Positions 1,478 through 13,679 of a stretch of DNA of 14,427 nucleotides are shown in pieces. Source of the DNA: Anaerobacillus sp. (GTDB lineage Bacteria > Bacillota > Bacilli > Bacillales_H > Anaerobacillaceae); contig SKOL01000309.1 of assembly GCA_007120055.1 (NCBI GenBank), forward strand, positions 1-14,427, read 5' to 3'. Each line of letters opens with the position of its first letter. Position 1 is the stretch's first letter. The position numbers and the translations under genes are program-made. Below the pieces are notes generated by a model. The model did not search any database and was not told the DNA's origin. It saw only the letters and a list, made by a program, of their open reading frames with translations.

Positions 1478-2929
1478 GTGATTGAAATGAAGTCGGGTGT
1501 AAAGCAGTATAAGGTTCTTCTTCAGACGGATCGAGTCGAAGCAAAAGGGTATTATGATGAAGTGTTGTTTCCGGTCGTCTGTGAAAATTTTTGTGCAAAA
1601 GTGGCAGAAGCGCATAAAGAAAAGCGGATGGGGAAATATGAGTATTTGATTATGTCAGTCGGTTTTACGATCGAGCCACTCATTATGTGGATCAAAGCGC
1701 TCAAGCCGAAAAAAGTGTATTTCATATGTTCAACGGAAACCGAGGATCTCGTCAATGATATTTGTGAAATTGCTGGCTTGAAACATACGCAAACGAGCTA
1801 TGATATTGTAGAAAGTAGCGATGGAATCGATGTGTATCAAAAGATTAATGATTACGTCAATAAACATAAGCTGCGACATGATTTGAAAAAGGTTGCTATT
1901 GACATAACAGGTGGGAAAAAGAGTACAGTGAGCGGGTGTAGCTCGGCTGCGAACCACCTTGGGATTGATATTTTATATGTGGACTATCATCAATATTTTA
2001 CTGATGAACGAAAGCCAATTCCTGGGACTGAATGTCCGGTAATTTTAGAAGATCCTCTTGAAGTATTCGGTGACCGCGAGTTAAATCGAGGGATTTTTAA
2101 GTTTAATAGTGAGGACTTTGATACTGCATCCGAAATTTTCGCCTCGATCAAAGAACGGGCCAATAATCCACGACCGTATGAAGCTTATGAAAATTTAGCG
2201 ATTGGATATGGACATTTGGAGTCAATGCATTTTGAATTAGCTCACAAGCATTTGCAAAGAGCGATTGACTTAGCCGAGCGAAATGATATTTTTGAAATAC
2301 CAATTCGTGATATTAGGATACAGCTTGATGTAATAAAACCTCTCATAAATATACATTTAAATACCGAACACGAAATTTTAAGTGATGAACATTTATTTTG
2401 GCATTTGTATGCGTATATGTTTGCCATGGCCGATCATTATTATATCGGGAAAAAATATGATATTGCGGCGATGCTCATGTATCGGTGCTTTGAAATGATT
2501 AGCCAGCGCTTACTGAATGTAAGAGGCATTAATACGTCTTCAGCTAGCTATAGTCATATTGATGAAGATTTATTACTTGAAAAAGTAAATGAAAAAAGTG
2601 CTGAAATTTATCCAGATTACCGTCCTCTTCAAGACCTTCCTAAAAAAATTGGCTTAATGCAAGGATATACGATTTTGAAAAGTTTAAATGAACCGATCGT
2701 TGCTCAAATTGATTTAGAAGATTTGAATAACCAAAGCTTATTACGAAATAAAAGTCGACTTGTTCATGGTTTTCAACTTCTTGAAGAAGGAGATGTCACA
2801 GGGTTTTATGGCCGTTTAAAAGGAATAACAAATAAATTATGGTCAAGTAGCGATACGCATCATTTAGGAAGACACTTTAAAGATCTTTGGAAAAAATACA
2901 GCTTTTTAAACATTCGAAAACTACATTAA
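1478..2929 (+). CDS. CARF-HEPN protein, TIGR02710/Cas02710-like (copy A)
   Basis: Probable second-messenger-gated ribonuclease of 483 aa. The N-terminal ~200 residues look like a CARF Rossmann domain: a strand and glycine loop YLIMSVGF at 56-63, LKPKKVYFICS at 75-85, and the CARF signature DITGGKK at 142-148 followed by small residues. A conserved linker EDPLEVFG (191-198) leads to TPR-like helices (about 210-270). The C-terminal helical region carries LRNKSRLVHG at 422-431, with R423-N424 and H430 fitting the HEPN ribonuclease pattern R-polar-X(4-5)-H. CARF domains of related Csm6/Csx1 proteins bind cyclic oligoadenylate and activate the HEPN RNase. That this protein does so is inference. 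The GTG start is chosen because GGGAGGGG ends 5 bases before it; the in-frame ATG at 1487 is too far. It is first in an operon, 19 bases before the next gene. Family assignment is from motif recognition only. Confidence 0.8.
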   Translation: MIEMKSGVKQYKVLLQTDRVEAKGYYDEVLFPVVCENFCAKVAEAHKEKRMGKYEYLIMSVGFTIEPLIMWIKALKPKKVYFICSTETEDLVNDICEIAGLKHTQTSYDIVESSDGIDVYQKINDYVNKHKLRHDLKKVAIDITGGKKSTVSGCSSAANHLGIDILYVDYHQYFTDERKPIPGTECPVILEDPLEVFGDRELNRGIFKFNSEDFDTASEIFASIKERANNPRPYEAYENLAIGYGHLESMHFELAHKHLQRAIDLAERNDIFEIPIRDIRIQLDVIKPLINIHLNTEHEILSDEHLFWHLYAYMFAMADHYYIGKKYDIAAMLMYRCFEMISQRLLNVRGINTSSASYSHIDEDLLLEKVNEKSAEIYPDYRPLQDLPKKIGLMQGYTILKSLNEPIVAQIDLEDLNNQSLLRNKSRLVHGFQLLEEGDVTGFYGRLKGITNKLWSSSDTHHLGRHFKDLWKKYSFLNIRKLH

Positions 2930-2948
2930 ATAAAGCAAGGTGATACAG

Positions 2949-5081
2949 ATGAAACAATATGAGCTATGGCTTGACGAAAGTGGAAAGTTTATCGATCAAA
3001 TTGAAACGGAAGAAGTCCCTTCAATGGTAGGAGGACTTCTTTTTCCTGTGGACCAATTTGATTCTGAAAAAGCGACACAGGTAGTGAATGAAATGAAAGA
3101 GCAACTCGGAATTGAAGGATCGATCAATGGAAAGTTTTTTCATAGTACAAAATACGGAACGTATGCAAAAACACTGTTAAAAAAGCTGTATGACGAAAAT
3201 GGGAAGTTTGTAGTCTTTCAAAATAAAGAACGTCTCTCCATTATTAACAATGATTATACGTATATTAATATTTTAGCAGAAGGGGTCATCCAACTTTTAA
3301 GAGTGTTACAAGGAACAAACAGTGAAGAAGTTCACCTCTCAGTTAAAGCGGCGCGAAGACTCAATGTCACAAAAAGCAAAGAGAATGGTATCAATTCTTT
3401 TATTCATGACGATGAATTTATCGTACGTTTAAAAGAGCGAATCTTATTAGCGATTGCTAGAACGGGCGCGAAAAACATGAATTGGGACTTTGAAGTTATC
3501 AATGCCAGAAGAGATATTCGTTCCGAAATTGGAGATTGTATTTGTCACACATGGTTTCGCAAGAATAGCCCGAAAAAATTTACTGACGAACATCGCGTTT
3601 TTATTCATGAACTATATCATGAGCCGTTTTTATTTTCGGTGTTTGAACATGCGACTTCGAGTGCGATTATGAGACTTTTAGGAGAAGGATCTGTAGGAGA
3701 AGCCTTGTTTGAGGCACTTGTTTGTTACGACGACTTAGAAGATCCGCATTTTCGAGAATCTGCCACTAAGACAGAAGTTCAAGTCCATCCGATACTAGAT
3801 TCAGTGATTCAGCGCTTCGTTGAACTTACCGATCGAAATCGCGATACTCAGTTTTCGATTACTGTACAAAACATTGAACAACTATTAGATGTCGATCGAG
3901 ACTTACAACTCGGGAAAACTGTTCTAGAAAATTTGCAAACACATGGTTTGCCATTGATTGCTGAAAGAAATATCCATTCCGATTTTCTTGCGATGAAAGC
4001 CGCAATGTTACTACTAGTTTGTGCGAATCACCAAGGGGATGTCATCGCGGCTGAAAAACAATTAAAACAATTACGAAAACATCTAAAGAAAATGCAAGGG
4101 CGTTTCGAGTTTTTAGATTTATGGGTGAAGATGGTTGTTTTAGAAGCCGTTCATGAAATGAATTGTTTCCAGTTTGAACGAGCCGTTGTTATTTTATCTC
4201 ATACTGAAAAAACGATGAAAGAAGTATTTGCTTTAGTTGCTACAGCGTTTCAAAATGATGAGGCTGAAGATCGAATGAAATCGCAATTAGTAGGCAAGTT
4301 ACTCGGTACTCGTCTATTAAGTAGAATTTTATTAGGTAGAAAAGATCCGAACCAACTACTTTGGGCTCGTCAAGATTCACAAGAAGCAATTTCTAAATTT
4401 TTTTATGAAGAGGATAAAAGCCGTCAATATCAATACCGTTCACAACTTGAATGTGAAGCTCACCAATTTCATGATTCTCTCTTCTGGTTAGGGAAGGCTT
4501 TTCATGTTGAGATCCATTCATTTTCGCAATGTACACAGCTTCTAGAAGCCATCGAATCTACGAATTATTATCAACGATTGTTCGGATTGATGCATTATAC
4601 GAGATTAATGGCGGAGCTTGCTTTAGCTGAGCAGCTAACCTATGCTGAACAAATGTTGATCGCATGGGATCATGCGGGAATCGAAAACATTGATGGAAAT
4701 GATCATCCTATCGAAATTATTTATTGGAAGCTGGCAACAACAGAAATGAAGCTACATCAGCCGAAAAAAGCTTTTCATCATTATGATAAAGCGCTGAAAA
4801 TTTGTCAATTCAACAAAGAACGTCTAACTTTACGAGTGATTAGTTTAGGGGTTGAATTCGAACGAGTCGCTTTATTAGCTGAGCAAAAAGATACCCGCTT
4901 TAGTAAAGAAATGAAAGAAAAGTATAATCATCGATCATTAAAAAAAGCGTATCAGAACCTTTTAAAAGAGGAAATTCCAAGTTCAATGCGAGAATTTCTT
5001 AGTGAATGGGAAGCGATTCTTGAATTAGAGGAAGTAGATGCTGATAGATCATTAAGTTACTCGAGGATGGTCCCTTATTGA
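2949..5081 (+). CDS. DUF3800-like N-terminus fused to a helical-repeat (TPR-like) region
   Basis: A 710-aa protein between the two CARF-HEPN genes. The start is ATG 2949, since AAGGTGAT lies 5 bases before it; the in-frame GTG at 2940 lies within that ribosome-binding site. Residues 7-12 read LWLDESG-like (D9, E10), then VGGLLF at 27-32, HST at 65-67, and near 190-205 a segment SEIGDCICHTWFRK with D196. This matches the layout of DUF3800 proteins (YxDESG at the start, a late ADLI-type acidic motif), a putative RNase H-fold nuclease family. Activity here is unproven. From about 340 to 655 it is helical, with TPR-like units such as KLATTEMKLHQPKKAFHHYD near 594. No membrane segment or signal peptide, so it is cytoplasmic. 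Its place between two CARF genes suggests a partner or second effector in the same response. The family call is tentative; the operon position is certain. Confidence 0.6.
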   Translation: MKQYELWLDESGKFIDQIETEEVPSMVGGLLFPVDQFDSEKATQVVNEMKEQLGIEGSINGKFFHSTKYGTYAKTLLKKLYDENGKFVVFQNKERLSIINNDYTYINILAEGVIQLLRVLQGTNSEEVHLSVKAARRLNVTKSKENGINSFIHDDEFIVRLKERILLAIARTGAKNMNWDFEVINARRDIRSEIGDCICHTWFRKNSPKKFTDEHRVFIHELYHEPFLFSVFEHATSSAIMRLLGEGSVGEALFEALVCYDDLEDPHFRESATKTEVQVHPILDSVIQRFVELTDRNRDTQFSITVQNIEQLLDVDRDLQLGKTVLENLQTHGLPLIAERNIHSDFLAMKAAMLLLVCANHQGDVIAAEKQLKQLRKHLKKMQGRFEFLDLWVKMVVLEAVHEMNCFQFERAVVILSHTEKTMKEVFALVATAFQNDEAEDRMKSQLVGKLLGTRLLSRILLGRKDPNQLLWARQDSQEAISKFFYEEDKSRQYQYRSQLECEAHQFHDSLFWLGKAFHVEIHSFSQCTQLLEAIESTNYYQRLFGLMHYTRLMAELALAEQLTYAEQMLIAWDHAGIENIDGNDHPIEIIYWKLATTEMKLHQPKKAFHHYDKALKICQFNKERLTLRVISLGVEFERVALLAEQKDTRFSKEMKEKYNHRSLKKAYQNLLKEEIPSSMREFLSEWEAILELEEVDADRSLSYSRMVPY

Positions 5082-5218
5082 TGACTTACGTTGACACGAA
5101 TGTTGAAGATGCAAGTATCTCTAAAAAAGTTAAGATTTATTTTTTAACTCCTAAAAACAACAACATTTTACAAAAAACGCTATTACTACAAGGAATTAAC
5201 CAAATTTTCAACGAATAG
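5081..5218 (+). CDS. Small 45-codon ORF translationally coupled to the gene before it
   Basis: The stop TGA of the preceding gene (5079-5081) overlaps this ATG (5081-5083) by one base in a TGATG junction, the usual sign of termination-reinitiation coupling. The predicted peptide starts MTYVDTNVEDASISKKVKIY and ends LLLQGINQIFNE. It is basic-to-neutral, has no cysteines and no membrane segment, and belongs to no family that I recognise. It stops 36 bases before the second CARF gene. It could be a small regulatory subunit, a remnant C-terminal piece of the upstream protein, or a chance ORF. The overlap is the main argument that it is translated. Confidence 0.45.
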   Translation: MTYVDTNVEDASISKKVKIYFLTPKNNNILQKTLLLQGINQIFNE

Positions 5219-5254
5219 TATGTATAGGTAAATCTACTTAGAGCGGGTGATGAA

Positions 5255-6709
5255 ATGACGACATTTAAAGATCATAAATCAACGTACATGCAAAAGTTAA
5301 AGATTAATAAGCATGAAGCACTAGTTTACTATCGGGAAAATTTATTTGATGAAATTTGCTCCGCTTTTATTGAAAAAGTAAAACTAAAGCAGGCAGTAGG
5401 GGAAATTCACGAATATGATTATTTAATTGTTTCCGTCGGCTTTAATATTGATCTGCTCATTATGTGGATTAAAGCGCTGCAGCCGAAGGAAGTATTTTTT
5501 ATTTGTTCGAAAGAAACCGAGAGCAAAATTAATGAGATTTGTAAGTTTACAGGTTTAAGCCACACCCAATGTGATCATAAAGTGGTAAAGCGTACGAATG
5601 GAACCGATGTTTATGAAGCGATCTTAGAATATTTAAATAAGCGGCGTATCACCGGTGATCAATTACTAAACAAAGTAGCGATAGACATTACAGGTGGTAA
5701 GAAAAATATGGTTTCAGGCTGCACGTTAGCGGCCAACTTTTTAGGGATTGACCTTCTGTATATTGATAATAACGGGAATTATTTAAAAGAAGAAAAACCT
5801 TTTCCAGGTCAAGAAGAGCCAATTAGGCTAGAGGACCCACTGGATACATTTGGTGGAAGAGATTTTAGGAAAGCGATCATTAAGTTTAATAGTGAAGATT
5901 TCAAGCAGGCGACAGAAATTTTTACAGAAATCAAAGAGCGGGTGACAAACCCCCGCCCTTATGAAGTGTATGAAAGCTTGGCCAAAGGTTATTTTTATTT
6001 AGAAGCGATGGAGTTTAATCAAGCCTATGAAAATATTGAAAATGCCATCCACTGGGGACGTAAATTTGACTTATGGAGAATTCCGTTCAATGAGCTTGAA
6101 CAACAACTGAAAGCGATTGAACCGTTAAAAAAACTAAGCCAGGAACCAGAAAGAAAAGTATTATCTGAGCCGGTACTATACTGGCACTTGTTCGGTTATT
6201 TTTATGAATTAACAAAACACTTTATTACGAGCAAAAAATACGATGCGGCCGCATTACTAACGTATCGCTCGTTAGAGTTAATCGTCCAACATTTATTACT
6301 TAAGCATGATATTTTCCATTCGAAGGCAAGCTATCGACATTTAGACCAAAAAAAGATGCTACAGAAATATAATGAATTTTCTAGCCAAGTTTATTTCAAT
6401 TATCGTCGTGTGTATCATTTACCTAGTAAGCTAAGCTTAATGAATGGACTTATTTTATTGAAGGCACTTGATGAACATATGGTAAGTGGTGTTAATCTGA
6501 AAACAGTTAACGATTTCCTGAATTTACGAAACAACAGTCGCTTTGCCCATGGCTTCGAGTTACTAAAAAAAGACGATGTATGTGAGTTTTTTCAGCAATT
6601 AGAATCTATTAACAACTTTATTTGGAATCATGATCAACATAAGTTTAACTTACAATGTCGCTTTGATGAGTTTTCTAAGCCGTTTGCATTTTTGAATATA
6701 AGTTTATAA
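5255..6709 (+). CDS. CARF-HEPN protein, TIGR02710/Cas02710-like (copy B)
   Basis: A 484-aa paralogue of the first operon gene, matching it over the full length. In the aligned CARF block at residues 54-105, I count 35 identities in 52 positions against copy A. CARF features are YLIVSVGF at 56-63, FFICS at 81-85 and DITGGKK at 144-150. EDPLDTFG (193-200) links to TPR-like helices, where NPRPYE is shared with copy A. The HEPN-type motif LRNNSRFAHGF has R425, N426 and H432. It probably acts as a ligand-activated RNase, alone or with copy A; homo- versus heterodimer is open, as CARF sites form at dimer interfaces in known members. ATG 5255 is chosen because the ATG five bases earlier stops at once; GCGGGTGA precedes it at short distance. 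It is last in the operon, followed directly by a terminator. Confidence 0.8.
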   Translation: MTTFKDHKSTYMQKLKINKHEALVYYRENLFDEICSAFIEKVKLKQAVGEIHEYDYLIVSVGFNIDLLIMWIKALQPKEVFFICSKETESKINEICKFTGLSHTQCDHKVVKRTNGTDVYEAILEYLNKRRITGDQLLNKVAIDITGGKKNMVSGCTLAANFLGIDLLYIDNNGNYLKEEKPFPGQEEPIRLEDPLDTFGGRDFRKAIIKFNSEDFKQATEIFTEIKERVTNPRPYEVYESLAKGYFYLEAMEFNQAYENIENAIHWGRKFDLWRIPFNELEQQLKAIEPLKKLSQEPERKVLSEPVLYWHLFGYFYELTKHFITSKKYDAAALLTYRSLELIVQHLLLKHDIFHSKASYRHLDQKKMLQKYNEFSSQVYFNYRRVYHLPSKLSLMNGLILLKALDEHMVSGVNLKTVNDFLNLRNNSRFAHGFELLKKDDVCEFFQQLESINNFIWNHDQHKFNLQCRFDEFSKPFAFLNISL

Positions 6710-6710
6710 G

Positions 6711-6746
6711 TGTGCTGCAAATGAAATTCGAAAGCGCACATTTTTG
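6711..6746 (+). terminator. Rho-independent terminator of the CARF operon
   Basis: TGTGCTGC (6711-6718) pairs with GCGCACA (6734-6740), with one bulged T, followed by TTTTTGTT. It starts just after the TAA of copy B, so the operon probably ends here. Confidence 0.7.
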
Positions 6747-6770
6747 TTAAAAACATTGAGACATCAGTGG

Positions 6771-6800
6771 GTAGGATAAAAATGTGGGTGTAGGTAAAAA
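6771..6800 (+). promoter_or_regulatory. Possible sigma-H-type promoter of the Spo0M-like gene
   Basis: GTAGGATAA (6771-6779) fits the B. subtilis sigma-H -35 pattern RNAGGAWWW fully. After 12 bases, AGGTAAAAA (6792-6800) is only a partial match to the -10 pattern RNNGAATWW. Expression of spo0M in B. subtilis is reported to depend on sigma-H, which is why I looked for it. The poor -10 keeps confidence low. Confidence 0.3.
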
Positions 6801-6879
6801 TGAATGTTTAAAAGACATTATTATTAAGTAAACAAAGGACTTTTATGAAGCAATTAAAAACCGGAAGGAAGAAGAAAGA

Positions 6880-7591
6880 ATGCCAAAATACCAAAAGAGA
6901 TTACATCGCGTTAATTTTGAAGACGTATCAATTATGACGACCGTAAATAAAACGCACTTTACTGTAGGAGAAGTCGTTGATGGGGAAGTAGAAGTAAAAG
7001 CGAATAAAGAAGATTCCGATCTTGGCTATTTATATATGTATTTAAAATCAGAATGCGCGAAAAATCCGAAACTCCCGTTAGAAAGAACTGAAGTGAAAAT
7101 TGATAAATTTGTGGTCGGTCAACCATTTCACATCTCGGCTGGACAAACGATTTATATCCCGTTTTCCTTTACAATCCCTTTCCACACACCAATTACTTAT
7201 CGTAGCGTAAAGGTCTTTATTCACACAGGCCTAGACTTACATGCCGGTGATGACCCGGAAGACACTGATTACATAGAAATAGGCCCATCTCCATTACAAG
7301 AAAAAGTGTTTCAAAGTATCGAATTATTAAAATTCGTCCAACAAAAACCCAAATATATCCCAACTGCTATCGAAGGCGAGTATTTACAAATATTTGAGTT
7401 CACTAAAAAAAAATTCATCCTATAAAAAATTAGAAATATCATTTATATCAAGCTGCACGGAAGCGATGCTCGTTCACGCCATCGGTACTTTTGACAACGT
7501 TTTACTTTTTGACGAAATGATCAATATACATAAAAACGAAACAGTTGAAGTAGTGAAAGAGAAGTTTGAGGGGAAGTTTAGTGGAAGTTAA
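6880..7591 (+). pseudogene. spo0M: Spo0M-like sporulation-control gene, frameshifted in an A9 tract
   Basis: The first 181 codons (6880-7425) encode an arrestin-like protein of the Spo0M family: FTVGEVVDGEVEVK near 27-40, the SAGQTIYIPFSFTIP block at 86-100, and the signature GLDLHAGDDPEDTDYIE at 117-133. After EFTKKK the frame runs into a stop. The +1 frame continues with KKLEISFISS and a plausible Spo0M C-terminus to TAA 7589-7591. The shift lies at nine A residues (7405-7413); with eight, a 237-residue protein would result, near the roughly 258 aa of B. subtilis Spo0M. The cause could be a true mutation, a sequencing error, or polymerase slippage that still yields some full product. GGAAGGA lies before the ATG. 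Spo0M is a cytoplasmic protein affecting sporulation and cell shape. Here it is probably host chromosomal context rather than part of the flanking operons. Confidence 0.7.
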
Positions 7592-7685
7592 ATATTGTGG
7601 TTGAGGGGCTAAAGTATCGAATAACTTATAATAAAAAAGTGTTGAAGCGCTGAAAAGTGACAAATATTTACTAACAAACGAATCA

Positions 7686-7720: not shown

Positions 7721-7834
7721 TTAAGAAACTATAGTTAGGAACCCCAAAAAGGTTATATCTCAATATCTCAACCGCTTCTATACTGTCACTTGTTCGCTAT
7801 TTTTATAAATTAACAGAATACTTTATTACGTGCT
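7720..7834 (+). pseudogene. Relic of a third CARF-HEPN gene copy (helical region)
   Basis: This intergenic stretch aligns with bases about 6125-6233 of copy B. The clearest part is 7778-7834 against 6176-6233: one gap and about seven mismatches, with shared blocks CTATACTG, CACTTGTTCG, ATTTTTAT, AATTAACA and ACTTTATTACG. Translated, one frame gives YFYKLTEYFIT against YFYELTKHFIT of copy B, and just before it, in another frame, LLYCHLF against VLYWHLF. Similarity falls off before 7760 and beyond 7834. It is closer to copy B than to copy A. It has no start, stops in every frame and no CARF part, so it is a dead fragment. Confidence 0.7.
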
Positions 7835-9215: not shown

Positions 9216-12200
9216 GTGCCAAGAACGAGTAAGATATTTCGTATATTTGTAAGTTCGACATTTGCCGATTTAAAGCACGAAAGACTTATCCTTCAGCGCT
9301 ATGTTTTTCCTGAATTGCAACAGTTTTGTGAAAAATTTGGTGCAAAACTCCAACCGATTGATTTACGTTGGGGGGTTAGTGAAGAAGCACAGCTCGATCA
9401 AAAGACATTGCAAATTTGTTTAAATGAACTGCAAAAGTGTAAAGAACTTTCTCCAAGACCGAACTTTCTTCTTTTATTAGGTAATCGTTACGGATGGCGT
9501 CCGGTGCCAGTAGAAATAAAGAAAGATCAGTTTGAACATATATTAGCATACTACGAAGCAACAAATAAATTAGGCCATTCCTTATTAACCAAATGGTATA
9601 AGGAAGATTGTAATAGTATTCCTGTGACGTACTGTTTGCAGAAGCGGGAAGGGAAATATATTGATCAGAACGAATGGTATGCAATAGAAGAGTCATTACG
9701 ATTATTGTTTGATCACGTGATTGCTGAATTATCGTTTCAAGAAAATGAACTGGGATCATATATGGTATCTGCGACCGAACATGAAATTAGAGCAGGGGCT
9801 TTCCAACAAGAAGGTGCTCATGATCATGTTTTTGCATTTTTTCGTAACATTCAAAGACTCCCTAAAGATAAGCGTGCAAAAGATTTTCAAGATTTTACTT
9901 CAGAAGGGAAAATAAATGAAGGTGCTCGGAAGCAATTAGATAAGTTGAAAAGTGACATTCAAGCTTTTTTACCAGAAGAAAATATAGCATATTATGAAGT
10001 TGGGTGGAAGGAGACAGACATTGATACTTCTTACTTAATGGAGTTTCGTGATGATGTTTTGAATAAACTAAAACCAATTATTGAAAAAGAGTGCCGTGAT
10101 ATTGAGCATATGGATGTTATTGCAGTAGAGAAAGAAAAGCATAAACAATTCGGTTTCGAACAGTCTCGCAATTTCATTGGAAGAGATGATTTATTTACAA
10201 AGATTGAAAAAGTCTTAAAGACGACAACGTCTCTACTCGTCATCTGTGGAGAGTCCGGTTCTGGAAAAACAGCGTTTGCCGCTGAATTGTCAAAACGCAT
10301 AGATCAACAATTAGAGAGTGCGAAGCTCACTCAACGTTTTATTGGGGCTTCTGCTTTTGGAACTAATACATTGGAGTTACTAGAATCAATTCTTGTTGAA
10401 CTAAAACCTGATGAGTCGGAAATAATAATTGCCCAAACTGAAATTGACGATTTATTACAACTTTTATTAGATGCATTTGATGAAATAACAAAACAAAAGC
10501 CTATATATATTGTGATCGATGGTTTAGATCATCTAACAGATCAATATTTGCTCCCAAAATGGTTTCTAACACAGTTGCCAGAACAAGTTCACTTGATTGT
10601 TACAGTTGCTAAAGATTGTGATGCTTATTCACTTCTTAAAAGGATCATTGACCAGGAAAATATGTTTGAGATTGGTCCATTAAGTGTTACAGAAGGAAGA
10701 AAACTGTTAGAACAGTGGCTAGCGGAATGGTCAAGAACGCTTCAAGCCAATCAATATAAAGAAGTGATTGAAAAGTTTAAGGAATGCCCTCTACCGTTAT
10801 TTTTGAAGTTCGCTTTTGAAGAGGCGAAACTATGGAAGTCCTATTCTGAAAACGTTAAAATTGAACCGTCCATATCAGGGGTGATTAATCAATTTTTGGG
10901 CAGAATCTCGAGTGATTCAAATCACGGTCCTGTCTTAGTTAAAAACGTATTTGGTTTTTTAGCCGCATCTAAGAGTGGTTTAGAAGAAGCGGAGTTACTT
11001 GAACTATTATCTCAATCCGAGGAAGTGATGGGAGATTTTAGAAGTCGTGCGAAGCATGAATATATTGAAAATAGTTTACCGCCGATTATATGGGCGCGCT
11101 TATTCGATGATCTCATACCTTATTTAGTAGAGAAGAAGGAAAATGGAACATTAGTTTATAGCTTTTATCATAGACAATTAGAAAAAAGAGTAAAAGAAGT
11201 GTATTTAATGAGCGACTTTCATCGAAGTATTTCTAATTATTATGATAAAAAGCCGACATTTCTTGATGATAATAAGACGCTACCTAACATTCGAAAGATA
11301 AGTGAATTGCCTTTTCAGTTATATCAAACGAGAGATATTGCTAACTATGAGAATATTTTAACTGACTTTGACTTTTTAGAAGCAAAATTTACAGCAATGT
11401 TTTCCCAAGATTTATTACATGATTATTCCTTATTAAAAGAGCTTATCACTGATGAAGGTTTACTGAAAAAAAGAGTAAATGACTTTGAAAGATTTTGTCG
11501 TATCCGCCATGACGTCCTCCTTCAATACCCTGACAGGTTAAAGTTATTTGCTTTAAGAATGCCACATGCTACATACGTATTTAAGGAGTCGGAACAGTGG
11601 TATATAGAAAGGGAAACACCCTATATAAGAGGCGGTAATTCTAATCTTAGCAAAAATAGATTCCTACATATTTTTGATATACAAGATGATAATGGATCAA
11701 TCTGTAAATTACACCCGAATGGTCAACATATTATTGTTGCGAGTGGAGAATTATTAAAAGTATGGGACATCATGACTGGGGAGGAAACCTTTCAACATCA
11801 TCCACAAATAGGAAAAATCAATAATGTATCTATTTCCGATGAAGCACTTCTTGCATCAATTGTTGGTGAAAAAGGACTAAAGGTAATTGACTTGCAATCT
11901 TATGATGTTTTTTATCAAAAACAAACGCAAGACGAACTATTATTAACTGATCTTCATATAAATGGTAGTTGCGTAGCTGTTAGCAATGCTGATGGTAATG
12001 TCTTGCTTATTAATATAGAAGATAACGAGGAGTTGCTTATTAAGAAAGAGGATTATGACGGAGTTTTTACACTGAAATGGCATCCCACTGAGCTTGTAAT
12101 TGCTATTTGGGCCAACGATGAAAAAATCTATTTAATGGATTTTAAAGAGGAAATGGAAAGCAAAGTACTTTATTCAGAATATCAGCTAGAAAAATATATA

Positions 12201-13679
12201 CTTTTTCCTAAATTTTATAATTTATCATTTGATGAGGAAACAGGCTTACTATATGCAAGTCAAGATTATGGTGTTACCGTTTGGGATATATTATTAGCTA
12301 GTCGAGTTAATAATACTGTTAAATTACCAAAAGGAAATCACATTTCAAATAAAAATGTGATATTCTCAGTTCAATATGATAATCAAATTAAAGTTTGGGA
12401 TGTTGATGGTTTTCATTATTTAACAATAGACCATAACTATTTTCAAACGTATAAATACGCTACGGTTCAAAAAGGTATATTAGCAGTTATCACTTTAGAT
12501 GGCAAAGTGGTTATTTGGGATTTAACAAAACTTAGAAAAAGTTATTCCGAAAGCAACGTCGAAATGATAAATGATAGTTTCTGGTGGGTTTTGGCACCAC
12601 TGATTTCAGGCATTATAACAAACACTATTATAAATCTATTTGAGAAGACCTTTAAAACATTTCATCGTGAAAATGTTGATATTAAAAAAGGTACTTTGAA
12701 CGAAAAAATACTTAATGTAAGCGTATCCCCAAATCAGTCATATATTTCAACAGGTCATTTAGGGAATTTCCTACAAATTAAAAATATAAAAGAAAACAGT
12801 ATTACACAGTTTAAACCTCATAATACAGAACCAATCTTGTATTCGAATTGGTCATTTGATGAATCGCTCATCTATTTTGGAACAACACAGCGAGCTTGGG
12901 TTATGACGTTAACTGGAAAATTAAAACAAACAATTAAAACAGAAAATAAAATAGTCAGTGGATCTTGGTCCCCAAACAAAAATCAACTGCTCGTTTTATA
13001 CACTGACGGAAACGTCTCGATATATGACTTTAATTTAGATTGTACACATCATTTGAAATTGGAAATAGAAGCATTTAACAAATTATTAAATAGTAGCTGG
13101 AGTAACCGTGGTGACCATTTTGTCATTTGTTATGAACAAACATATCTACTTTATGAGTTTATTGAATCTCCTAAGTTAGTTGTTAAGAGAGATAATACAA
13201 AGAAAATCCATAAGGTAGTGTGGAGTCCTGATGATCAATTACTTACTTTCGTAGACTATCATTATGAAACGACTTTGGTTAGCTTAAATGATGGGGAAGT
13301 CAAGTCACGGTTTGATATTGTCAGTTCCAAAGAGATGAAAAAGTATTCGACATACTATAATTACCTCACAACACCAATCAATCAACGAATTGCCTTTTTA
13401 AATTCTATTGTACAAGGAAACAATAAAGGGAAGTATACAGTATGCTATATTCGTTTTCTACCTTTTCAATTATTAGTTTCATGGAAAGATAATATGAAAA
13501 AAATAGCATTTGCTTATGGAAATTGGTTAACAGTTTTCGTTTTAGACAACGGGAACGAACGTATTCATTGTTATATTGATGATGGTATTCATCACATAAA
13601 TTGGGAGAATAATAATCTTCGTGTTTTAACAGGAAACAAGTTGGATGAAGAAGTGTTTGTGATTGTCGATGAGTTTTAA
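9216..13679 (+). CDS. STAND NTPase: DUF4062, NACHT-like ATPase, WD40 propellers
   Basis: A 1487-aa multidomain protein. N-terminus: RIFVSSTFADLKHER (9-23), PIDLRWGVSEEA (47-58) and LGNRYGWRP (88-96), the pattern of DUF4062, found at the front of eukaryotic NWD1, TEP1 and nephrocystin-3. ATPase: Walker A GESGSGKT at 345-352, Walker B YIVIDGLDHL at 431-440, then winged-helix-like helices to about 700. C-terminus: WD40-like sheets from about 828, with LKVWD (W850), VTVWD (W1023), IKVWD (W1061) and VVIWD (W1101). A hydrophobic helix spans 1121-1142, and a second set (WSFDESL, WSPNKNQ, WSPDDQ) runs to 1480. Such proteins stay inactive until a trigger lets them oligomerise and fire the N-terminal domain; bacterial relatives often act in phage defence. 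That role here is inference. The GTG start has GGAGGGGG 5 bases before it. It is last in the operon, 16 bases after the membrane protein. Confidence 0.85.
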   Translation: MPRTSKIFRIFVSSTFADLKHERLILQRYVFPELQQFCEKFGAKLQPIDLRWGVSEEAQLDQKTLQICLNELQKCKELSPRPNFLLLLGNRYGWRPVPVEIKKDQFEHILAYYEATNKLGHSLLTKWYKEDCNSIPVTYCLQKREGKYIDQNEWYAIEESLRLLFDHVIAELSFQENELGSYMVSATEHEIRAGAFQQEGAHDHVFAFFRNIQRLPKDKRAKDFQDFTSEGKINEGARKQLDKLKSDIQAFLPEENIAYYEVGWKETDIDTSYLMEFRDDVLNKLKPIIEKECRDIEHMDVIAVEKEKHKQFGFEQSRNFIGRDDLFTKIEKVLKTTTSLLVICGESGSGKTAFAAELSKRIDQQLESAKLTQRFIGASAFGTNTLELLESILVELKPDESEIIIAQTEIDDLLQLLLDAFDEITKQKPIYIVIDGLDHLTDQYLLPKWFLTQLPEQVHLIVTVAKDCDAYSLLKRIIDQENMFEIGPLSVTEGRKLLEQWLAEWSRTLQANQYKEVIEKFKECPLPLFLKFAFEEAKLWKSYSENVKIEPSISGVINQFLGRISSDSNHGPVLVKNVFGFLAASKSGLEEAELLELLSQSEEVMGDFRSRAKHEYIENSLPPIIWARLFDDLIPYLVEKKENGTLVYSFYHRQLEKRVKEVYLMSDFHRSISNYYDKKPTFLDDNKTLPNIRKISELPFQLYQTRDIANYENILTDFDFLEAKFTAMFSQDLLHDYSLLKELITDEGLLKKRVNDFERFCRIRHDVLLQYPDRLKLFALRMPHATYVFKESEQWYIERETPYIRGGNSNLSKNRFLHIFDIQDDNGSICKLHPNGQHIIVASGELLKVWDIMTGEETFQHHPQIGKINNVSISDEALLASIVGEKGLKVIDLQSYDVFYQKQTQDELLLTDLHINGSCVAVSNADGNVLLINIEDNEELLIKKEDYDGVFTLKWHPTELVIAIWANDEKIYLMDFKEEMESKVLYSEYQLEKYILFPKFYNLSFDEETGLLYASQDYGVTVWDILLASRVNNTVKLPKGNHISNKNVIFSVQYDNQIKVWDVDGFHYLTIDHNYFQTYKYATVQKGILAVITLDGKVVIWDLTKLRKSYSESNVEMINDSFWWVLAPLISGIITNTIINLFEKTFKTFHRENVDIKKGTLNEKILNVSVSPNQSYISTGHLGNFLQIKNIKENSITQFKPHNTEPILYSNWSFDESLIYFGTTQRAWVMTLTGKLKQTIKTENKIVSGSWSPNKNQLLVLYTDGNVSIYDFNLDCTHHLKLEIEAFNKLLNSSWSNRGDHFVICYEQTYLLYEFIESPKLVVKRDNTKKIHKVVWSPDDQLLTFVDYHYETTLVSLNDGEVKSRFDIVSSKEMKKYSTYYNYLTTPINQRIAFLNSIVQGNNKGKYTVCYIRFLPFQLLVSWKDNMKKIAFAYGNWLTVFVLDNGNERIHCYIDDGIHHINWENNNLRVLTGNKLDEEVFVIVDEF

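What the first reader, a model, noticed from the sequence alone, without database searches (positions are those of the whole stretch)
1478..6709. Candidate signalling module: CARF-HEPN / DUF3800-like helical-repeat protein / small ORF / CARF-HEPN
Two full-length CARF-HEPN paralogues flank a 710-aa protein whose N-terminus resembles DUF3800 (putative RNase H fold), all in one operon with its own terminator and no cas gene or CRISPR array in view. I know of CARF-HEPN RNases as type III CRISPR accessories, but not of this gene order. If the middle protein is a nuclease, one small-molecule signal could drive two different nucleases. Sequence shows the motifs and the gene order; the function is inference.
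Basis: partly seen in the sequence, partly recalled or inferred. Interest (0 to 1): 0.8.

Follow-up and report, generated by a model that had tools for sequence, protein, structure and literature searches.

The report
Twin RNases flanking RNase-H-fold protein
Two RNA-cutting proteins of a kind normally switched on by CRISPR signals flank a long protein predicted to be a nuclease on a scaffold; the parts recur in bacterial defence settings, but this trio was found only here and how it is triggered is unknown.

The parts
1478..2929 (+). CARF-HEPN1 (TIGR02710/Csm6-like, 483 aa); HEPN motif RNKSRLVH at residues 423-430 (2744-2767); CARF motif DITGGKK at residue 142
   Evidence: TIGR02710 114.6 bits, PDLC01801 E 2.8e-115; motifs
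2949..5081 (+). MID: RNase-H-fold + TPR-like protein, 710 aa
   Evidence: ORF; models; 25 homologous loci
2949..3740 (+). MID N-terminal RNase-H-fold domain (residues 1-264); invariant D9 E10 S11 G12 (2973-2984), H65, R137, D196 (3534-3536) in 25 of 25 aligned rows
3789..5078 (+). MID C-terminal TPR-like helical solenoid
   Evidence: helices in model; Foldseek matches of the whole model are mostly TPR-type proteins, none at E<=0.001; weak TPR HMM hits below cut-off
5081..5215 (+). 45-aa small ORF overlapping MID stop (TGATG); probably leader sequence
   Evidence: no significant match in the loci held; in-frame stop in L036
5151..5254 (+). conserved leader of CARF-HEPN2 incl. ribosome-binding region; homology with relative L036 begins at 5151
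   Evidence: blastn 92.9% over 2451 columns; junction alignment
5255..6709 (+). CARF-HEPN2 (TIGR02710/Csm6-like, 484 aa); HEPN motif RNNSRFAH at residues 425-432 (6527-6550)
   Evidence: TIGR02710 118.2 bits; 95% identical copy in G623
6708..6743 (+). weak hairpin plus U run after CARF-HEPN2
   Evidence: fold -9.9 kcal/mol, z -1.22

Best explanation
The region is a variable defence module: Csm6-like CARF-HEPN RNases plus an RNase-H-fold/TPR nuclease (MID) on a scaffold. Likely action (inferred): an infection-linked nucleotide or RNA-end ligand binds the CARF dimers and switches on non-specific HEPN RNA cleavage; MID, acting through its D-E-D centre and recruited through its TPR-like arm, attacks a second nucleic-acid target or assists the same response, giving dormancy or death of the infected cell. 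The CARF-HEPN belongs to a branch, in Bacillaceae, found in genomes without a recognisable cyclase, so its trigger is probably not Cas10 in the same locus. Shown: domain content, motifs, gene order, recurrent defence neighbourhoods, variability. Inferred: activity, ligand, cooperation of MID with the CARF-HEPNs.
For: CARF-HEPN identity and intact HEPN motif. RNase H fold for MID with D9, E10 and D196 in 25 of 25 rows. MID neighbourhoods: array or cas gene in 8 of 25 loci (arrays in 6; cas genes); of 30 MID loci held, AAA + PDDEXK_7 in 4, kinase/VWA/PP2C in 3, VWA/tubulin-like operon in 1. CARF-HEPN adjoins the VWA/tubulin-like operon in 3 of 5 genomes with a close copy. Co-presence in 299 order-level genomes: CARF-HEPN 5, tubulin-like 11, both 3 (p 4e-4); MID 8, tubulin-like 11, both 3 (p 0.002); MID and CARF-HEPN both 2 (p 0.006). 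The sample is centred on G001, which has all three; without it p is 0.006, 0.02 and 0.09 (Fisher, not corrected for kinship). No convincing Cas10, SMODS or mCpol in the 5 CARF-HEPN genomes. CARF-HEPN1 and MID 19 nt apart.
Against: CARF-HEPN beside MID in 0 of 30 MID loci; TIGR02710 anywhere in only 1 of the 25 genomes of L001-L025. CARF-HEPN2 stands without MID at this place in the nearest relative. The window's MID lies in a Bacilli clade with no CRISPR link in the 7 other loci seen, and several MIDs stand among seemingly ordinary genes, judged by eye (L001, L044, L082). CARF-HEPN1 and CARF-HEPN2 are not recent duplicates. MID/CARF-HEPN co-presence is not significant without the centre genome (p 0.09). 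G001's best PF22335 hit passes Pfam's cut-off (29 bits vs 27), though I read it as a GGDEF protein. No activity data.
Confidence: 0.45

Rival explanations
1. Chance neighbours in a defence island: each gene is an independent, mobile defence or stress gene, and they lie side by side only in this genome.
For: CARF-HEPN beside MID in 0 of 30 MID loci; CARF-HEPN2 next to spo0M without MID in L036; MID among seemingly ordinary genes in L001, L044 and L082; a NACHT/WD40 gene downstream fits an island; MID/CARF-HEPN co-presence p 0.09 without the centre genome.
Against: 19-nt gap between CARF-HEPN1 and MID; both families adjoin the same VWA/tubulin-like operon elsewhere; L009 has MID followed by CARF effectors.
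Confidence: 0.32
2. Detached effectors of a type III CRISPR system lying elsewhere in the genome: Cas10-made cyclic oligoadenylate activates both CARF-HEPNs, and MID is a type III accessory.
For: TIGR02710 is named as a CRISPR-associated family; MID lies in loci with Cas10 in L009, L020, L023 and L025; the distant CARF-HEPN of G459 lies in a locus whose neighbours read as cmr-type genes and which holds Cas10. The paper PMC11229360 (passages) suggests that some effector-less loci use effectors coded elsewhere.
Against: No convincing Cas10 in any of 5 genomes with a close CARF-HEPN, including the near relative G623 (2.7 Mb, many contigs, maybe incomplete). The window's own genome is not held.
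Confidence: 0.15
3. The CARF domains sense RNA ends (2',3'-cyclic phosphate or tRNA fragments), in the way suggested for RtcR, and the module is an RNA-damage response rather than a cyclic-oligoadenylate one; MID makes or removes the RNA fragments.
For: No known cyclase in the carrying genomes; RtcR has a divergent CARF and its operon is regulated by damaged tRNAs (title and start of abstract of PMC7790460 in the listing).
Against: No RtcB/RtcA-like gene in the lists for the 7 window proteins scanned; the CARF core keeps the DITGGKK motif seen across the family.
Confidence: 0.08

Closest known systems
Csm6/TIGR02710 CARF-HEPN ribonucleases (type III CRISPR ancillary effectors)
   Same: CARF, 6H and HEPN domains, R-N-x5-H motif, length
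   Different: no cas10 or array in the contig; the close relatives sampled are in genomes without convincing Cas10, three of five beside a VWA/tubulin-like operon; two non-recent paralogues flank MID
TPR-DUF3800 protein linked to Cas12a2 (PMC10910872) and DUF3800 RNase-H-fold nuclease of VI-F and V-A2 loci (PMC12669027)
   Same: RNase-H-fold domain and TPR repeats in one protein; one MID locus (L012) lies beside a CRISPR array whose repeat resembles type VI repeats (recalled)
   Different: here beside CARF-HEPN; the homologues found lie in type III-like, AAA+PDDEXK, VWA/kinase or isolated contexts, and no Cas12a2 or Cas13 was sought; the published sequences could not be compared
RNase HII
   Same: closest fold of the MID N-terminal domain; a D-E pair on the first strand
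   Different: sequence identity about 9-15% in the best rows; the further conserved residues (H65, R137, D196) were not mapped onto the RNase HII active site; fused to TPR
vWA / tubulin-domain systems near CRISPR loci (PMC10910872, passage)
   Same: VWA-like and Tubulin_2 proteins associated with CARF or defence genes
   Different: the four-gene operon VWA/Tubulin_2/~720 aa/~1280 aa with a CARF-HEPN or MID beside it was not identified in the passages I saw

Membership tests
TIGR02710 / Csm6-like CARF-HEPN | NCBIfam model above curated cut-off | tested here: met
   114.6 and 118.2 bits vs 83.9
TIGR02710 / Csm6-like CARF-HEPN | HEPN domain with catalytic R and H aligned to a solved Csm6 | tested here: met
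   RNNSRFAH vs RNSALLVH of 5fsh; motif in 27 of 27 members of the tree set
TIGR02710 / Csm6-like CARF-HEPN | activation by cyclic oligoadenylate | not testable with these tools
   needs protein
Type III CRISPR-Cas locus | Cas10, RAMP genes or CRISPR array beside it | tested here: not met
   none in the 14.4-kb contig; the rest of the genome is not held
DUF3800 (PF12686) | Pfam model match | tested here: not met
   no match in the window protein (E<=1) or P0002-P0004 (E<=5); not among the 25 of 48 families shown for 26 members; its 2 hits in 10 MID genomes lie on contigs other than the MID genes
DUF3800 (PF12686) | profile-profile similarity | tested here: inconclusive
   hhalign of 25 MID N-termini against only 2 DUF3800 proteins, probability 0.3%
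RNase H superfamily | RNase H fold | tested here: met
RNase H superfamily | complete acidic metal-binding site and activity | tested here: inconclusive
   D9, E10, D196 invariant in 25 of 25; geometry not measured, activity untested
CRISPR-associated TPR-DUF3800 protein | RNase-H-fold domain plus TPR repeats | tested here: met
   (models)
CRISPR-associated TPR-DUF3800 protein | sequence relation to the published members | not tested
VWA/Tubulin_2 operon | Tubulin_2 (PF13809) gene beside the module | tested here: not met
   no PF13809 match shown for the 7 window proteins (25 of 48 families shown for the last of them)

The most novel reading that the evidence does not exclude
A branch of CARF-HEPN immunity in Bacillaceae that works without Cas10 or any known cyclase, in which CARF-HEPN RNases and an RNase-H-fold/TPR nuclease are exchangeable or joint effectors, in some genomes of a VWA/tubulin-like membrane operon and here combined in one cassette. 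It would mean an unrecognised signal or sensor upstream of Csm6-type RNases.
Probability: 0.3. Interest if true: 0.8.

Novelty: new variant of a known kind. Interest (0 to 1): 0.55.

Why it matters
Csm6-like RNases are known as servants of type III CRISPR. Here their close kin sit in genomes with no recognisable cyclase and share an operon partner with an RNase-H-fold/TPR protein that also recurs in CRISPR loci. This makes a direct question testable: what activates a CARF-HEPN when there is no Cas10? It also names a rare protein family (MID) that moves between CRISPR, AAA+PD-(D/E)XK pairs, kinase/VWA and CARF settings.

Tried and rejected
Searches that gave nothing: MID by tblastn in plasmids; MID and CARF-HEPN alignments in viral contigs (pattern matches, none confirmed); MID alone in genome contigs, though the alignment later found 25 loci. 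The protein search with the MID alignment returned the same four proteins; only the 7996 candidates sharing most words were scored. Rfam: none. CARF-HEPN2 in plasmids: one distant Meiothermus record. Foldseek of the full-length MID gave mostly TPR-type proteins, none at E<=0.001, so the N-terminal domain was modelled alone.

Considered and rejected: a recent tandem duplication of the CARF-HEPN genes (CARF-HEPN1 branches outside a 15-row group, support 98/97, that holds CARF-HEPN2 and the tubulin-linked copies); the small ORF as a gene; DUF3800 as a proven Pfam assignment. PF22335 hits at E 1e-3 to about 1e-6 were read as GGDEF proteins because E. coli rings in the control; that is my reading, some of them pass Pfam's cut-off (G001 29 bits, cut-off 27), and their identity was not tested further. 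The hit in G459 is distant (26%) and was left out of the count of close CARF-HEPN genomes (5 of 6 kept). One search scanned 27 sequences for arrays: L001-L025, L026 and the window. One search scanned 19 other loci as a rough control: one had an array, the locus L042 with Cas10; that control is poor, because three of the 19 hold a MID (L044, L045, L048, the last repeating L001) and several overlap one another. Cas6 at the end of L014 was read by eye and gave no Pfam match (49 aa). P-values do not correct for kinship; the rarity counts include the centre genome G001 itself. MID flanks were at most about 10 kb and several contigs are short (L013, L014, L017, L021, L024 under 6 kb). On checking, I found that co-presence leaned on G001, recomputed it without G001, and lowered the best explanation from 0.50 to 0.45 and raised chance neighbours from 0.27 to 0.32.
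Full report
WHAT IS THERE. The 14,427-bp window is itself a whole contig, and no whole genome is held for it. On the + strand lie CARF-HEPN1 (1478-2929), a 710-aa protein here called MID (2949-5081), a 45-aa small ORF (5081-5215) and CARF-HEPN2 (5255-6709), followed by spo0M, an ankyrin-repeat protein, a probable membrane protein (by eye; no Pfam match) and a DUF4062/NACHT/WD40 protein. No CRISPR array, no tRNA and no Rfam match were found.

THE CARF-HEPN GENES. Both pass TIGR02710 (114.6 and 118.2 bits; cut-off 83.9), Pfam's Csm6 HEPN and Csm6_6H models, and match PADLOC's CARF_HEPN model PDLC01801 with E 2.4e-112 or better. phmmer aligns CARF-HEPN2 to Thermus Csm6 with RNNSRFAH opposite RNSALLVH. 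The motif RN-x5-H is present in 27 of 27 members of the tree set (25 distinct rows) and DIT-x-G-x-K in 25 of 27. The two are 46% identical. In the tree CARF-HEPN2 pairs with a 95%-identical copy in genome G623, while CARF-HEPN1 branches outside a 15-row group (98/97) that holds CARF-HEPN2 and the tubulin-linked copies, so they are old paralogues. Named proteins among the 20 found with CARF-HEPN1 include Alkalihalophilus pseudofirmus, Sutcliffiella horikoshii, Alteribacter species, Evansella tamaricis and a Methanosarcinales MAG.

WHERE MID OCCURS. It is rare. Counting the centre genome G001 itself: 1 of 398 genomes of the class sample (no other than G001), 2 of 35 in the family search and 8 of 299 in the order sample. 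Of the 25 loci, 8 carry a CRISPR array or cas gene: L009, L012, L014, L020, L023 and L025 have arrays; L009 has Cas10 and two CARF proteins matching CARF-PDDEXK/Csx1 models; L020 has Cmr1, Cas10, Cmr4, Cmr5 and Cmr6, the last directly before MID; L023 has Cas6 and CorA; L025 has Cas10 and a RAMP gene; L017 has a RAMP gene and Cas1; L021 has a reverse transcriptase-Cas1 fusion. In a tree six of these form one clade of seven (100/100, one row unlinked), so they are not independent; L009 and L012 lie elsewhere. The window's MID lies in a nine-row Bacilli clade; none of its 7 other loci seen (L001-L007) is CRISPR-linked, and the context of P0003 is unknown. Other partners: an AAA + PDDEXK_7 pair in L003, L008, L081 and L083; a PIN-like/kinase, VWA and PP2C operon in L005-L007 (Pfam run on L005 only, the others by clustering); NTPase-TPR proteins in L015 and L018. 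L001, L044 and L082 seem to lie among ordinary genes, by eye. A window-type CARF-HEPN lies within the held flanks of 0 of 30 MID loci (L001-L025, L044, L045, L081-L083), and TIGR02710 is found anywhere in 1 of the 25 genomes of L001-L025.

THE CARF-HEPN CONTEXT AND THE SHARED PARTNER. CARF-HEPN2 was sought in 299 order-level genomes: 6 had it, 5 of them close (45-95% identity) and one distant. In three of the five (G589, G571, G001) the CARF-HEPN directly adjoins, in the same direction, a four-gene operon: a protein with a VWA-like DDSGSM motif (by eye; no Pfam match), a Tubulin_2 protein (PF13809, E 9e-63), a protein of about 720 aa and a protein of about 1280 aa with a hydrophobic start. In G525 the CARF-HEPN stands in the syntenic place without the four genes. 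In G031 the same four-gene operon, its last gene cut by the 10.6-kb stretch fetched, is preceded by a MID, of which the last 527 residues are held. The tubulin-like gene is in 11 of 299 genomes; in the stretches fetched, CARF-HEPN adjoins it in 3 of 11 and MID in none of the 11 (G031 is not one of them). Co-presence: CARF-HEPN with tubulin-like 3 genomes (p 4e-4), MID with tubulin-like 3 (p 0.002), MID with CARF-HEPN 2 (p 0.006). The sample is centred on G001, which carries all three and was reached because it has a MID; without it the values are 0.006, 0.02 and 0.09. No correction for kinship was made. So the two effector families meet through a shared operon partner, which is the best indirect support for a link.

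NO KNOWN CYCLASE. PF22335 (Cas10 palm) gives no hit in G571, G525 and G623, and only weak hits in G589 (9e-4) and G001 (3.5e-6, 29 bits, over the cut-off of 27), which I read as GGDEF proteins because E. coli also passes in the control; the Cas10 loci of G459, G020, G023 and G025 score 6.1e-26 or better. SMODS is in 0 of 7 genomes searched, and mCpol hits only the Cas10 of G459. Limits: G623 is only 2.7 Mb in many contigs and may be incomplete, and the window's own genome is unknown.

THE NEAR RELATIVE. In G623 contig C369 (L036), DNA 92.9% identical to window 5151-7596 carries CARF-HEPN2 and an uninterrupted 237-aa spo0M, but upstream of the point matching 5151 there is neither MID nor CARF-HEPN1 in the remaining 1.4 kb of that contig. 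A second copy, 80% identical, stands on another short contig (L037), and no MID was found in that genome. Hence CARF-HEPN1 + MID looks like a variable cassette beside an older CARF-HEPN2/spo0M pair. The conserved DNA before CARF-HEPN2 suggests it has its own leader, and the small ORF is broken in the relative.

HOW IT LIKELY WORKS. Inference: infection or stress makes a ligand for the CARF domains; the HEPN dimers degrade RNA; MID, held by its TPR-like arm, cleaves a second nucleic acid or assists. PMC11229360 (passages) reports that co-occurring type III effectors usually share one activator, which fits two CARF-HEPNs with one signal, but MID has no sensor domain that I could detect. I give the module reading 0.45, chance neighbours 0.32, a detached type III system 0.15, an RNA-end sensor 0.08.

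COMPARISON WITH WHAT IS IN PRINT. PMC10910872 (passages) describes a TPR + DUF3800 protein with Cas12a2, modelled as an RNase H fold with a catalytic rearrangement, and vWA systems with tubulin-domain proteins near CRISPR loci. PMC12669027 (passages) mentions a DUF3800 nuclease in VI-F and V-A2 loci. Searches for DUF3800 with Csm6, CARF or type III CRISPR found only these two papers; a search with TPR, DUF3800 and Cas12a2 added one genome paper, seen in the listing only; TIGR02710 with Csm6 found none. Searches for CARF or HEPN with vWA and tubulin terms listed a few papers, of which I read only PMC10910872, in passages. Of PMC13187428 I saw the abstract and outline. So the pairing seen here was not found in print by those searches of that library.

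Noticed in passing
window 7764-7833: A stretch 84.5% identical over 71 columns to the middle of CARF-HEPN2 (6162-6232), so a further partial copy once lay downstream.
   Followed up: partly
window 6880-7425: spo0M (181 aa) is shorter than the 237-aa copy in the near relative L036; an A-run lies just before its end.
   Followed up: no
window 9216-13679: 1487-aa DUF4062-NTPase (NACHT/AAA)-WD40 protein with an NWD1-type HTH match, with ankyrin and probable membrane proteins upstream; maybe another defence gene.
   Followed up: no
L038, L041, L045, L047, L066-L073: Conserved operon of VWA-like protein, Tubulin_2 protein, ~720-aa protein and ~1280-aa protein of unknown function (the last two not matched in L072 and L073; broken into pieces in L071); the tubulin-like gene is in 11 of 299 order-level genomes.
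   Followed up: partly
L003, L008, L081, L083: MID next to an AAA + PDDEXK_7 pair in four genomes; a possible restriction-type system with a MID subunit.
   Followed up: partly
L005-L007: MID at the head of a PIN-like/kinase, VWA, PP2C operon.
   Followed up: no
L009: CRISPR array (runs of 91 and 7 exact repeat copies), MID, two CARF proteins (CARF-PDDEXK/Csx1 models) and Cas10 in a row.
   Followed up: partly
L012:147-806: CRISPR repeats of about 36 nt resembling type VI repeats (recalled) directly upstream of a MID, near a contig edge.
   Followed up: no
L020, L023, L025: MID at the cmr6 end (L020, L023) or the cmr1 end (L025) of Cas10/cmr operons, with a shared gene weakly matching DEDDh (E 0.007 in L023) and CorA in L023, which might mean SAM-AMP-type loci.
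   Followed up: no
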